Source: Betaproteobacteria bacterium (GTDB lineage Bacteria > Pseudomonadota > Gammaproteobacteria > Burkholderiales > Rhodocyclaceae). Taken from it: DNA of 7,156 bases. Below are positions 3,011-7,018 of the stretch, one piece after another (within the stretch, counting starts at the first letter, position 1; every line of letters begins with the position of its first letter). Both the position numbers and the translations under genes were made by a program. Below the pieces are notes generated by a model. The model was not told the origin of the DNA, did not search any database, and saw only the letters and a program-made list of their open reading frames with translations. The stretch spans positions 1 to 7,156 of the forward strand of contig JAGWUW010000136.1 in NCBI GenBank assembly GCA_028868235.1. The letters are read 5' to 3'.

Positions 3011-3889
3011 ATGAACAGGCTATCCGCTGGCGTCCATACCATCCCGCTGAGTGACTATGTGGCTGATCCGGCCCCTTGTCCGTCGCTCAATGCCGGAACC
3101 GCGCATACGCTGTTGACGCTGAGTCCTCAGCACGCCTTTCTGCAACACCCGCGCTTGAATAGCGATCATGCCTCTGACCAATCGAGCCGGTTAGACATCG
3201 GCACGATTGCTCACGCCTTGCTGCTGGAAAATGATTCCAGCCGAGTAGTGGTCATCGATGCTGAGGATTGGCGGAAGAAAGAGGCGAAAGATCAGCGCGA
3301 CGAAGCGCGGGCGCTTGGACAATTACCGATCTTGAGCAAAGACTATTTCGGTATCCAAGAAATGGTCATCCAAGCGCAGGCACAGATTGCGAAGAGCGAG
3401 TTTGCGAGTGACTTTCAGGAAGCGATAGCGGAGCAAACCTTGCTCTGGGAACACGACGGCGTGTGGTGCCGCTCGCGACCTGATAAGGCCACCCCGGATT
3501 GGAGAATCTTATTCGATTACAAGACGGTGGCTGGGTCAGCCAATCCGCACGCGTTCATGCGGACCATTATTCAGCAAGGGTACGATATCCAAGCGGAGCT
3601 CGGCAGGTTGGGGGTTGAGGAGCTTGGCCTCTGTCATCAGGTCAACTTTGTCTTTCTGGCTCAGGAGATTGAACCGCCCTATGCCATGTCCTTCATCAGC
3701 CTGAGCCCTGCCTGGCAAGACCTGGCCCATCGAAAGCTGAAGATTGCCATGTCGATGTGGAAGGGGTGCCTGCGCAAGAACGAATGGCCAACCTATCGAT
3801 CAGATGTGGCCTATCTCGAACCGCCTGCCTATGCCTCACTGGACTGGGAAGACAATCTGTCACCCATCGATGCGGAGGATTTCGTGTAA
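3011..3889 (+). CDS. RecE/DUF3799-type PD-(D/E)xK exonuclease
   Basis: A 292-residue putative 5'-3' double-strand DNA exonuclease that would resect ends to leave 3' overhangs for annealing. The N-terminal pattern (GVHTIPLSDYVADP, then PSLNAG and LLTLSP) matches the usual opening of the exonuclease VIII C-terminal/DUF3799 family. Candidate active-site residues are His68 in DIGTIAHALLLE, Asp158 in CRSRPDKA, and Asp169 with Lys171 in LFDYKT. Tyr191 and Gln194 in GYDIQAELG form the RecB-family helix motif. The length suits a stand-alone nuclease domain. AGGAG lies immediately before the ATG with no spacer, so initiation may depend on reinitiation from the stop four bases upstream; no earlier in-frame start exists. 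The neighbours, a coiled-coil protein and a Sak4-like ATPase, support a recombination role. Confidence 0.85.
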   Translation: MNRLSAGVHTIPLSDYVADPAPCPSLNAGTAHTLLTLSPQHAFLQHPRLNSDHASDQSSRLDIGTIAHALLLENDSSRVVVIDAEDWRKKEAKDQRDEARALGQLPILSKDYFGIQEMVIQAQAQIAKSEFASDFQEAIAEQTLLWEHDGVWCRSRPDKATPDWRILFDYKTVAGSANPHAFMRTIIQQGYDIQAELGRLGVEELGLCHQVNFVFLAQEIEPPYAMSFISLSPAWQDLAHRKLKIAMSMWKGCLRKNEWPTYRSDVAYLEPPAYASLDWEDNLSPIDAEDFV

Positions 3890-3918
3890 TGAGCACTCAC
3901 ACAAAAGAAAGGATTGAC

Positions 3919-4743
3919 ATGACTTCTGTACAAACAACCGAGGTAGCGATTATCCCCACGTCCATCCAGGAGTATGAAAAGACAGCGGCGGCGTTAGCTG
4001 AGCTGGATCGTCGCTACAAAGGCATCCGGTACGATGTGCTCACCAAGGACGGGTTACTCGCGGCGACGAAGGCGAGAGCTGAATTGCGTACGCTCCGCAT
4101 TGCCTTGGAAAAAACGCGCGTGGCGATTAAAGCCCCCGCGCTCAAGCGCACGCAGGAAATCGATACCGAGGCGCGGCGACTGACGGCGGCAATATGCGCG
4201 CTGGAAGATCCGATTGACGCACAGATTAAGGCAGAGGAGATGCGCAAGGAACAGGAACGGCTGGCGGCGGAACGCGCCGAGCAGGAGCGGATCGAGGCCG
4301 AGCAGCGCGCAATCCGAGAGGCAGAGCAACGCAAAATCGAGGAAGCGCAAGCTGAGATTCGACGACGGCAGGACGCACTCGACCGAGCCGAGCAGGCGAG
4401 ACGAGAGGAAGAAGCCGAGCACCGTCGTGTGATCGAGGAGCAGGACCGTGCGGCACGGTTACGCATCGAGGAGGAGGATCGGAAGGCCAGAGCGATTCGC
4501 GAGGAGCAGGACCGTGTGGCTCGAATAGCACGGGAAGAAGAAGAGCGAAAGACTCGCAAGGCACGAGAGGAAGAGGAGGCGCGGTTAAAGGCGGAGCGAG
4601 ACAAGATGGATGCCGAGCGCCGGGCGGTGGAGGAGGCCCAGAGGAAGGCACGGGAGGAAGAGGAAGCGCGAGCCAGGAAAGAGCGTGACAGGAAAGAGGC
4701 CGAGCAGCGAGCTATTGAGGAAAGGAAGCGCAAGGCGAGATAG
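3919..4743 (+). CDS. Coiled-coil phage recombination-associated protein (DUF1351-like), N-terminal part up to an in-frame TAG
   Basis: 274 residues. I chose the ATG at 3919 because AGAAAGGA (3906-3913) precedes it by five bases; the in-frame ATG at 3889 overlaps the exonuclease stop but lacks such a site. Residues 1-105 form a helical head (PTSIQEYEKTAAALAELDRR, TKARAELRTLRIALEKTRVA, IKAPALKRTQEIDTEARR) resembling DUF1351-type proteins found beside phage annealing proteins. Residues 105-274 are a long, highly charged Glu/Arg/Ala coiled coil like TolA. At 4741 the codon is TAG, directly before CAG, yet the same frame continues for 54 codons to the start of the ATPase gene. The gene is therefore either broken by a point mutation, read through, or misread at one base. 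Its position between nuclease and ATPase suggests a bridging or loading role, inferred. Confidence 0.75.
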   Translation: MTSVQTTEVAIIPTSIQEYEKTAAALAELDRRYKGIRYDVLTKDGLLAATKARAELRTLRIALEKTRVAIKAPALKRTQEIDTEARRLTAAICALEDPIDAQIKAEEMRKEQERLAAERAEQERIEAEQRAIREAEQRKIEEAQAEIRRRQDALDRAEQARREEEAEHRRVIEEQDRAARLRIEEEDRKARAIREEQDRVARIAREEEERKTRKAREEEEARLKAERDKMDAERRAVEEAQRKAREEEEARARKERDRKEAEQRAIEERKRKAR

Positions 4744-4908
4744 CAGGAAGAGGAGAAACAGCGTGAAATTCAACGCCGCGAGAGTGCGGTGCTGGACGCG
4801 AACGCGATGCTCGCGACATTCATGGAACGGTTTGGGCATCTCGAGGAGTTTGCACCCGTCGTGACGGCGATCACGAAATTTCTCGTGAAGGGGAAGGGGA
4901 CACGATGA
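4744..4908 (+). pseudogene. C-terminal continuation of the coiled-coil gene beyond the TAG
   Basis: 54 codons continue in the same frame after the TAG and end in a TGA that overlaps the ATG of the ATPase gene (ATGA), the junction style seen throughout the window. The first part (EEEKQREIQRRES) carries on the coiled coil. The rest (VLDANAMLATFMERFGHLEE, then FAPVVTAITKFLVKGKG) looks like a compact helical tail. No stop or frameshift has accumulated, so the interruption is recent or tolerated. Independent translation is doubtful: in-frame starts (GTG 4789, ATG 4807) have no good ribosome binding site. With the TAG read as an amino acid the whole protein would be 329 residues. Confidence 0.65.
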
Positions 4909-5930
4909 GCATTACCTTTCGACGAGCCATACGCGAAAACATTGGGTTGATTATCGGGTTGGCTGGTCCATCGGGTGGAGGGAAAACACTCAGCGCCATG
5001 CGCCTGGCGAAGGGCCTCTGTGCAGGAAAGCCGTTTGCCTTCATCGATACGGAAAATGGACGCGGCAAGCATTATGCGGACAGTTTCGAGTTCGACCATG
5101 CCGATCTCTCCGCTCCGTTCCGGCCGTCGAGCTATGCGGACGCGATTAAGGCCGCTGATGCCGCGCACTATCCGGTCATCGTGGTGGATAGCTGCTCACA
5201 TGAGCATGCCGGAGAGGGAGGGCTCTTGGATTGGCATGAAGAAGAACTCGACCGCATGGCCGGGGACGATTGGAAGCGACGAGACGCCTGCAAAATGGCG
5301 GCATGGATCAAGCCGAAGATGGACCACAAGCAATTTGTCAGCCGACTCTTGCAAGTCCGTGCGCATCTCATCCTCTGTTTCAGAGCCGAGCAGAAGGTGG
5401 AGATGAAAAAGATTGATGGACGGATGGAGATCGTGCCAAAGACGGTAGCCAGTGGCTTTAGTGACTGGATACCGATTTGCGAAAAAAACATGCTGTACGA
5501 ACTGACCGCCTCGTTCCTGCTCACGCCGGAAGCCCCAGGGGTGCCGAAGCCGATCAAGCTGCCTGGTGCGGTGCGTCCGTTCATCAGTCTCAAGGACCCG
5601 CTCAATGAACAAGTCGGAAAGGACCTGGCCGAGTGGGCCAGCGGAACGAAGTCTGCTGCGCCGCCCGGTGCGAAGACGGAACGCCATGAACAAGTTGAGC
5701 GGGGTGACGCGCTCGCCCATGACACGTCCAAGCCAGCTCGCGAGGCTGCTTCGACAGGACCAACCATGACGGCGGCGAACGCCTGTCAACAGTTTCGGTT
5801 GTCCGAAAGCGTGGCGGAAGCCGCGCAACTCATGAATCAGTGGATGGCGGAAGCGCACAGCGCCGAGGACCGTCAGCGCGTGAATGCGGCCTTTGCCGAG
5901 GCAAAACAACGTTTAGCGAGGAGGAAATAA
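4905..5930 (+). CDS. Sak4-like P-loop ATPase, phage single-strand annealing/recombination
   Basis: A 341-residue RecA-superfamily ATPase of the AAA_24/Sak4 type, which in phages supports single-strand annealing or strand pairing and replaces RecT, Erf or Redbeta. Walker A is GPSGGGKT (residues 21-28), followed by FAFIDTENGRG (44-54) and Walker B VIVVD (91-95). Other typical features are AHLILCFRAEQK (153-164), where Arg160 could act as a sensor, and EKNMLYELTASFLL (193-206). Residues 245-288 are a Pro/Ala-rich linker. Residues 289-341 are a helical tail that may bind a partner, possibly an SSB protein; no SSB gene is seen here. AAGGGGA (4894-4900) precedes the start, which overlaps the coiled-coil frame. 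With the exonuclease upstream it forms a complete resection-plus-annealing pair. Confidence 0.82.
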   Translation: MSITFRRAIRENIGLIIGLAGPSGGGKTLSAMRLAKGLCAGKPFAFIDTENGRGKHYADSFEFDHADLSAPFRPSSYADAIKAADAAHYPVIVVDSCSHEHAGEGGLLDWHEEELDRMAGDDWKRRDACKMAAWIKPKMDHKQFVSRLLQVRAHLILCFRAEQKVEMKKIDGRMEIVPKTVASGFSDWIPICEKNMLYELTASFLLTPEAPGVPKPIKLPGAVRPFISLKDPLNEQVGKDLAEWASGTKSAAPPGAKTERHEQVERGDALAHDTSKPAREAASTGPTMTAANACQQFRLSESVAEAAQLMNQWMAEAHSAEDRQRVNAAFAEAKQRLARRK

Positions 5931-6319: not shown

Positions 6320-6491
6320 TGAAATCTGCGAAGACGACAACGAAGAGACGGAATGCGGGAAGCCCTGTTCTCCTCAGAGCCGTTGCGAAGAGTGTAGCGC
6401 GTACTGGGATCGGATGATCCAGGAAGGATTGTGGGACCCGGACAAAGGCTGGACGGATAAAGGCTGGCGATCCATTACGGGAATCTTTTAG
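6312..6491 (+). CDS. Acidic cysteine-rich small protein
   Basis: A 59-residue protein starting MSDEICEDDNEETECGKPC after GGGAGG (6301-6306). An acidic N-terminus precedes Cys15-x3-Cys19 and Cys25-x2-Cys28, likely one zinc site. The following part (SAYWDRMIQEGLWDPDKGW) is aromatic and well defined; a CxEC-x-x-YW-x-x-M pattern seems familiar from phage proteins but I cannot name it. It ends in TAG, the only other TAG stop among the complete genes here. If TAG were read as an amino acid the frame would run on for only 13 further codons to a TGA. Role unknown. Confidence 0.6.
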   Translation: MSDEICEDDNEETECGKPCSPQSRCEECSAYWDRMIQEGLWDPDKGWTDKGWRSITGIF

Positions 6492-6547: not shown

Positions 6548-6764
6548 GCTCTCTCCCCGCGAACGCGATGTCTTGCAAATGATGTGGGATGGATTGACCT
6601 ACGCAGAAATCGCAAAATGCCTGTCGGTGACCAAGCACTATATCGAACAAATCAGAGGACGGATTGGTCTGAAATTGCAAGTCAAGGCCTATCGCAATCG
6701 CGAGTATACGTCGAACATTCAGGTAATCAGGAAGGCGTTAGAGAAAGGACTGATCCAATTATGA
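6540..6764 (+). CDS. Stand-alone LuxR/GerE-type HTH protein
   Basis: A 74-residue protein that is almost entirely a LuxR-type HTH domain: LSPRERDVLQMMWDGLTYAE followed by IAKCLSVTKHYIEQIRGRIG, where residues 31-42 are the likely recognition helix. The C-terminus (SNIQVIRKALEKGLI) closes the fourth helix. There is no receiver or autoinducer-binding domain, so activity would depend on dimerisation and expression level. It may regulate later phage genes or host genes. GGAGGTGA (6526-6533) is a near-ideal ribosome binding site six bases upstream, but it can be folded into a hairpin. A Cys at position 27, in the turn region, is slightly unusual. The stop overlaps the next start (ATGA). Confidence 0.85.
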   Translation: MIELSPRERDVLQMMWDGLTYAEIAKCLSVTKHYIEQIRGRIGLKLQVKAYRNREYTSNIQVIRKALEKGLIQL

Positions 6765-7018
6765 TCACCTGTCCCCGCTGCCAGGGCTGCCTGGTCCAAC
6801 AGTGGAACATGGAGTTGCGGTGCAATGATTCGCGGTGTATCGCCTGCGGCCACTATCCGACCTGGCCGACGAAAGACAGGCCGGTGGAGAACCGAGGGAA
6901 GCATGCGCGCGAGAGCTGCGTGCATAGTTGTAGATGTGGCCGGCCAAAAGTGTCGTGGCGGTCGGTGTGCGCGAAGTGTTTGATTCAGGTGGGGGTGATA
7001 CAGCCGCAGAAACACTGA
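6761..7018 (+). CDS. Double zinc-ribbon-like protein
   Basis: An 85-residue protein starting MITCPRCQGCLVQQW. The first unit is Cys4-x2-Cys7 with Cys26-x2-Cys29-Gly, a typical zinc-ribbon pair of knuckles, with further cysteines at 10 and 21. The second unit is Cys53-x3-Cys57-x-Cys59-Gly and Cys70-x2-Cys73. A basic linker (residues 37-51) joins them. The start overlaps the LuxR-type gene stop by four bases. Its own ribosome binding site is weak (AAAGGA 12 bases away), so translation is probably coupled. Zinc ribbons of this sort often bind nucleic acid or RNA polymerase, but no specific role is supported. Confidence 0.65.
   Translation: MITCPRCQGCLVQQWNMELRCNDSRCIACGHYPTWPTKDRPVENRGKHARESCVHSCRCGRPKVSWRSVCAKCLIQVGVIQPQKH

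What the first reader, a model, noticed from the sequence alone, without database searches (positions are those of the whole stretch)
4741..4743. In-frame amber codon inside an otherwise intact coiled-coil recombination gene
The frame from 3919 meets TAG at 4741 but then continues for 54 sense codons, keeps the coiled-coil character, and ends in the ATGA overlap with the Sak4-like gene, as expected for the true gene end. The bases read CGA TAG CAG; a single C-to-T change at 4741 would turn a Gln codon into TAG, and Gln suits the coil. Options are a recent nonsense mutation, a sequencing error, programmed readthrough giving two protein forms, or UAG reassignment to Gln as known in some phages. 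In favour of a reassigned or rare UAG, only one other complete gene here ends in TAG (6489-6491); all the others end in TAA or TGA.
Basis: partly seen in the sequence, partly recalled or inferred. Interest (0 to 1): 0.75.

Follow-up and report, generated by a model that had tools for sequence, protein, structure and literature searches.

The report
Lone stop codon in phage-type gene
One phage-type gene in a DNA-recombination operon carries a premature stop codon on this contig, while other database contigs encode the same protein whole, so this is likely an ordinary private mutation or assembly error and not a changed genetic code.

Summary
In detail: an in-frame TAG (4741-4743) splits one gene. 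Its 5' piece (3889-4743) and 54-codon tail (4744-4908, TGA in an ATGA overlap with the AAA_24/Sak4-like gene) belong to one DUF1351-like coiled-coil protein. The tail is the family's conserved C-terminus: 117 of 120 listed homologues match it. The database holds the whole protein (P0003, 339 aa, identical at all 338 other residues) from two contigs of at most 6433 bases; the neighbouring AAA protein is on three contigs, the longest 7156 bases, the window's length. The window's record is thus the odd one out. At the stop column P0003 has Glu, as do 74 of 107 homologues; Gln is in 4 of 107, against the Gln reading. Code reassignment has no support: normal coding density under the standard code, another gene ending in TAG, no CUA tRNA in the window or among 19 tRNAs of a 70%-complete genome. 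Conserved readthrough has none either: the 25 relatives' loci with both parts (24 contigs) are unsplit. Best reading: a private nonsense change, as consensus error or very young allele; reads would decide. Low interest.

The parts
3011..3889 (+). DUF3799 PDDEXK-like / exonuclease VIII-like gene, first of the three-gene recombination module
   Evidence: Pfam PF12684 46.2 bits (cut-off 26); phrog_412 exonuclease VIII E 1.3e-55
3889..4743 (+). 5' piece of the DUF1351-like coiled-coil gene, ending at the premature TAG
   Evidence: PF07083 24.2 bits, under the cut-off of 27.8
4741..4743 (+). in-frame TAG, seen in this contig only among the copies and relatives examined
4744..4908 (+). 54-codon tail piece: the family's conserved C-terminus, predicted to be lost under normal termination on this contig
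   Evidence: 117 of 120 listed homologues match it; 25 of 25 relatives' loci with both parts have them in one ORF, the window does not
4905..5930 (+). AAA_24 (Sak4-like) ATPase gene, overlaps the tail by ATGA
   Evidence: PF13479 41.5 bits (cut-off 27); phrog_1366 (unknown function) and weakly phrog_124 Sak4-like; identical protein on 3 contigs, longest 7156

Best explanation
The TAG at 4741 splits one otherwise intact DUF1351-like coiled-coil gene on this contig, and it is likely a private point change (a consensus error or a very young nonsense allele), not a recoded or programmed-readthrough codon. Shown: the whole protein is recorded from two contigs and differs from the window's two pieces only at the stop column; the tail is the family's conserved C-terminus; none of the relatives examined with both parts is split there. 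Inferred: if the change is real, ribosomes would stop after residue 284, and the protein would lose the end of its predicted long helix and the short helix after it. It would probably keep its N-terminal domain but work poorly as a partner of the exonuclease/Sak4-like pair. I cannot tell error from young allele without reads and hold them about even; the confidence is for the two together.
For: P0003 (339 aa, 2 contigs, longest 6433) begins with the whole 284-residue 5' piece and ends with the whole 54-residue tail, with one sense residue between. The adjacent AAA protein is recorded 100% identical on 3 contigs, the longest 7156 = window length. Tail matched in 117 of 120 listed homologues. 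Loci of relatives with N-part and tail: 25 of 25 in one ORF (24 distinct contigs), the window alone split. The closest whole-length relatives, P0004-P0009 at 75-80% identity, run through the site, as does L002. The predicted structure of P0003 has a helix 53-315 and a short helix 319-337, so the stop at residue 285 lies in the long helix.
Against: No reads were available, and the two contigs with the whole protein could not be fetched as DNA; that the three contigs of P0123 are the window plus the two of P0003 is inferred from counts and lengths. The source field of both proteins is blank, so the two contigs may come from the same sample as the window. No truncated 274-284 aa protein at 100% identity is among the 120 listed hits, although the 7156-base record seems to be in that database; I cannot explain this. 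A second amber in this gene family (L030, 1 of 92 loci; the only mismatch in 6344 bases against L027) against 0 of 80 AAA loci leaves room for something less trivial.
Confidence: 0.9

Rival explanations
1. First half of the best explanation: the TAG is a real nonsense allele in the phage population, tolerated because the coiled-coil protein or its C-terminus is dispensable in some hosts.
For: A second family member, L030, carries a lone early TAG (127-129) while two otherwise near-identical contigs do not (1 mismatch in 6344 and in 6067 bases). The tail shows no decay: 54 of 54 residues equal P0003, as for a young allele. The site is mid-contig.
Against: The C-terminus is conserved in 117 of 120 listed homologues, so its loss should cost; L030's TAG lies near its contig's start, where assembly is less safe (general knowledge).
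Confidence: 0.45
2. Second half of the best explanation: the TAG is a consensus or base-calling error of this assembly.
For: Fragmented, 70%-complete assembly of 646 contigs; two contig records encode a sense residue; the rest of the gene is identical to them.
Against: The site is mid-contig (4741 of 7156), and the three module genes show no other break; the small genes have no relatives in the fetched loci, bar one hit for the HTH gene, so their integrity was not judged.
Confidence: 0.45
3. UAG is reassigned to Gln (code 15) in this phage.
For: One in-frame TAG with a conserved frame after it; TAG is a rare stop here, 2 of 18.
Against: Genes called under table 11 already cover 0.889 of the window, against medians of 66.8-69.0% in phages predicted to use code 15 before re-annotation (PMC11210395, passages); 94 Gln codons in those genes; another gene ends in TAG; Glu, not Gln, in most relatives; no CUA tRNA seen. 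That the called genes hold no other TAG is so by construction and is no separate test.
Confidence: 0.02
4. Programmed readthrough makes a short and a long form.
For: Both forms would be largely helical by the model of the whole protein.
Against: No stop at this column in the 25 loci with both parts nor in the otherwise identical P0003.
Confidence: 0.03
5. The tail is a separate small gene restarted within 4744-4908.
For: ATG codons occur in the tail.
Against: Tail and coiled coil are one ORF in 25 of 25 relatives' loci with both.
Confidence: 0.02

Closest known systems
duf1351-sak4 phage gene neighbourhood (PMC8093625, passages seen)
   Same: A DUF1351-type gene directly upstream of an AAA_24/Sak4-type gene, as that paper reports for Streptococcus phages
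   Different: Here a PDDEXK nuclease gene precedes it; the same order with the tail was found in 3 of 92 fetched loci, two of them the same contig (L002/L016, L018); one AAA homologue is named Nitrospira sp.; the middle gene is split by TAG on this contig
Phages that use code 15, TAG to Gln (PMC10607447 and PMC11210395, passages seen)
   Same: An in-frame TAG inside a conserved phage gene
   Different: One TAG only, no suppressor tRNA seen, Glu and not Gln at the column, normal coding density
Lone nonsense differences between near-identical metagenome contigs, e.g. L030 versus L027 and L028
   Same: Single TAG in one of several near-identical contigs, in the same gene family
   Different: Different position in the gene (near the start), and Gln there in the sibling contigs

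Membership tests
DUF1351 (PF07083) | Pfam gathering score reached by the window's 5' piece | tested here: not met
   24.2 bits against 27.8. Homologues at 78-80% identity (P0004-P0006) carry the PF07083 label, P0003 does not; so I write DUF1351-like
AAA_24 / Sak4-like | PF13479 gathering score for the downstream gene | tested here: met
   41.5 bits against 27
UAG-to-Gln code (table 15) | Several conserved genes interrupted by TAG, low coding density under table 11 | tested here: not met
   One interrupted gene; coding fraction 0.889 under table 11. Only 7.2 kb of the phage is in view
UAG-to-Gln code (table 15) | Suppressor tRNA with CUA anticodon (present in about half of predicted code-15 phages) | tested here: inconclusive
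   None in the window nor among 19 tRNAs of G000, but the genome is 70% complete and the phage's other contigs are not identified; 375 of 715 predicted code-15 phages had one (PMC11210395)
UAG-to-Gln code (table 15) | Gln at the TAG column in relatives | tested here: not met
   Q in 4 of 107, E in 74 of 107
Programmed stop-codon readthrough | Stop conserved at that place in relatives | tested here: not met
   25 of 25 loci with both parts unsplit; 67 of the 92 loci had the N-part only and could not be judged
Private nonsense variant or error | Whole copy of the same gene in other records | tested here: met
   P0003, 2 contigs, longest 6433
Private nonsense variant or error | Reads at the site | not testable with these tools
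   No reads are held

The most novel reading that the evidence does not exclude
Nonsense alleles arise repeatedly in this coiled-coil recombination gene in natural phage populations (the window; L030), because switching the protein off or shortening it is an advantage in some hosts.
Probability: 0.05. Interest if true: 0.45.

Novelty: already known. Interest (0 to 1): 0.1.

Why it matters
Mainly as a caution: a lone in-frame TAG in a metagenome contig should be checked against other contigs of the same phage before a changed code or readthrough is proposed. The useful by-product is a conserved C-terminal motif of the DUF1351-like proteins, fused to the coiled coil, whose role beside Sak4-like ATPases is untested here.

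Tried and rejected
Exact-match search of the 24 bases before the stop in viral contigs: 0, so no DNA copy of the whole gene could be read; the collection tools warn that records of the window's own or a very near genome may be left out, so this is no proof of absence. DNA and protein searches of 76 genomes of the genus, the own one included, found only the window itself. In 50,697 phage records the 5' piece matched 47, all under 60% identity, none over 80% of the query. Open frame past the stop as evidence by itself: rejected, because other genes stay open as long or longer. Rarity of TAG stops as evidence of recoding: rejected. Counting internal TAGs in the called genes as a test of recoding: rejected as circular, since the genes were called as open frames. 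A frame slip of mine for the gene at 6761-7018 made one search fail and stands in the table; it was corrected. A fold search of the model was left out, since a 263-residue single helix with pTM 0.33 would give empty matches. The third protein-database search was left unused. Recurrence of nonsense alleles could not be tested: among the 92 family loci only one set of near-identical contigs (L027/L028/L030) differs within the aligned gene; the L019/L020 match begins past the gene, and the other pairs are 100% identical.

Full report
What is there. The window (contig C53 of a 3.18 Mb, 646-contig, 70%-complete assembly) carries a run of small + strand genes and a three-gene module: a DUF3799 PDDEXK/exonuclease VIII-like gene (3011-3889), the gene in question, and an AAA_24/Sak4-like ATPase gene (4905-5930). 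The middle gene starts at ATG 3889 in a TAATG overlap, meets TAG at 4741-4743, and its frame goes on for 54 sense codons to TGA 4906-4908 in an ATGA overlap with the ATPase gene.

Is the tail part of the gene? An open frame of this length is common here: three other genes stay open 78, 72 and 54 codons past their stops. But 117 of the 120 listed homologues of the 5' piece (653 passed the threshold) match the tail near their C-terminus. The three without a hit are P0014 and P0099 (172 and 163 aa, from contigs of 1114 and 656 bases) and P0041, whose end looks similar by eye. Profiles of the N-part and of the tail, built from A1 and searched apart over 92 family loci (1, 11, the best 80 of 122), found both in 25 loci and in one ORF in all 25; 67 had the N-part only, with other tails or cut short, and say nothing here. 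L002 and L016 are the same contig, so the 25 are 24 contigs; in the 80 AAA loci one more unsplit case is again that contig (L166). L030's early TAG cuts only the first positions of the N-part model, so it counts as unsplit there. Against the nearest DNA relative, L002, differences in the tail favour third positions (31 of 59), and 21 of 42 changed codons are synonymous, against 3 of 39 when the tail is read in a shifted frame. The tail has thus been selected as coding in this frame, more loosely than the body (162 of 238 third positions; 127 of 182 changed codons synonymous).

What stands at the stop in other copies? P0003 is 339 residues: the window's 284-residue 5' piece, one residue, and the 54-residue tail, all letter for letter; the one residue is Glu. 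It is recorded on 2 contigs, the longest 6433 bases. The neighbouring ATPase protein is recorded, 100% identical, on 3 contigs, the longest 7156 bases, which is the window's length. The simplest count is the window plus two contigs with the whole gene; this is inference, since no contig names are given and the source fields are blank. A truncated protein from the 7156-base record is not among the 120 hits listed, which I cannot explain. Of 107 homologues whose tail match reaches the column (10 of 117 dropped because the match began later; positions extrapolated without gaps; P0003 included), 74 have Glu, 11 Asp, 6 Ala, 6 Arg, 4 Gln, 3 Leu, and one each Trp, His, Val; among those with tail identity of 60% or more, 16 of 18 have Glu.

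Recoding. Eighteen complete + strand genes called under the normal code, with 94 Gln codons (tail piece counted), end in TGA 10, TAA 6, TAG 2, this stop among the two; with the left-edge gene they cover 0.889 of the window. That these genes hold no other TAG is so by construction. Phages predicted to use code 15 have median coding capacities of 66.8 and 69.0% before re-annotation (PMC11210395, passages), and phAss-1 has TAG in 41 ORFs and three suppressor tRNAs (PMC10607447, passages). ARAGORN found no tRNA in the window. The 19 tRNAs of the assembly were read for their anticodons from 15 of the 19 loci, which hold all 19 genes; none has CUA (a tRNA-Leu with anticodon TAG is the ordinary one). 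That last test is weak at 70% completeness.

How common are such stops? In-frame stops in the first 130 residues of the family protein: 1 of 92 loci (L030). In the first 245 residues of the ATPase, as a control: 0 of 80 loci, the best 80 of 106. L030 differs from L027 at one base in 6344 and from L028 at one in 6067, and that base makes the TAG; its siblings read Gln there. It lies at 127-129 of its contig. Two lone ambers in one gene family are a small curiosity, but they are what errors or fresh mutations, not yet filtered by selection, would look like; one case against none is no difference in rate.

What a real truncation would do (inferred). The model of P0003 (mean pLDDT 81.2, pTM 0.33) is mainly one helix 53-315 followed by a short helix 319-337. 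Stopping after residue 284 would remove the end of the long helix and the short helix, a stretch with several nearly invariant positions (R292, D303, L308, F311, R314, G316, I328 of P0003). One paper notes that DUF1351-type genes sit upstream of erf-ssb modules and of sak4 genes, in the place of gam-, DUF2483- and gp157-type genes, and takes the shared place to imply an analogous function (PMC8093625, passages); it does not speak, in what I saw, of this C-terminus.

Verdict. A private nonsense change on this contig: consensus error or very young allele, about even. Not recoding, not programmed readthrough. Interest low.

Noticed in passing
1702-1925: About 24 copies of a 9-base repeat (TGCGGCGGA) inside ORF 1274-2056 give an Ala- and Asp-rich repeat; no Pfam or PHROGs match for the ORF.
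   Followed up: partly
1195-1262 and 2075-2142: A 68-base direct repeat, 87% identical, 880 bases apart; the first copy is the 3' end, stop included, of the small gene 1083-1262.
   Followed up: partly
L030, 127-129: Early in-frame TAG in another gene of the family, the only mismatch in 6344 bases against L027.
   Followed up: partly
window 4744-4905: Conserved C-terminal motif (LDA-AML-TFV-RFGHL-EF) in most listed homologues, while many distant loci carry other C-termini after the same N-part: the N-terminal domain is combined with several different tails.
   Followed up: partly
3-191, - strand: A divergently read small ORF at the left edge, open at the window's end, faces the + strand gene run.
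   Followed up: no
4905-5930: An ATPase homologue (P0131, 77% identity over 83%) is named as from Nitrospira sp. in public records, a hint at the host.
   Followed up: no
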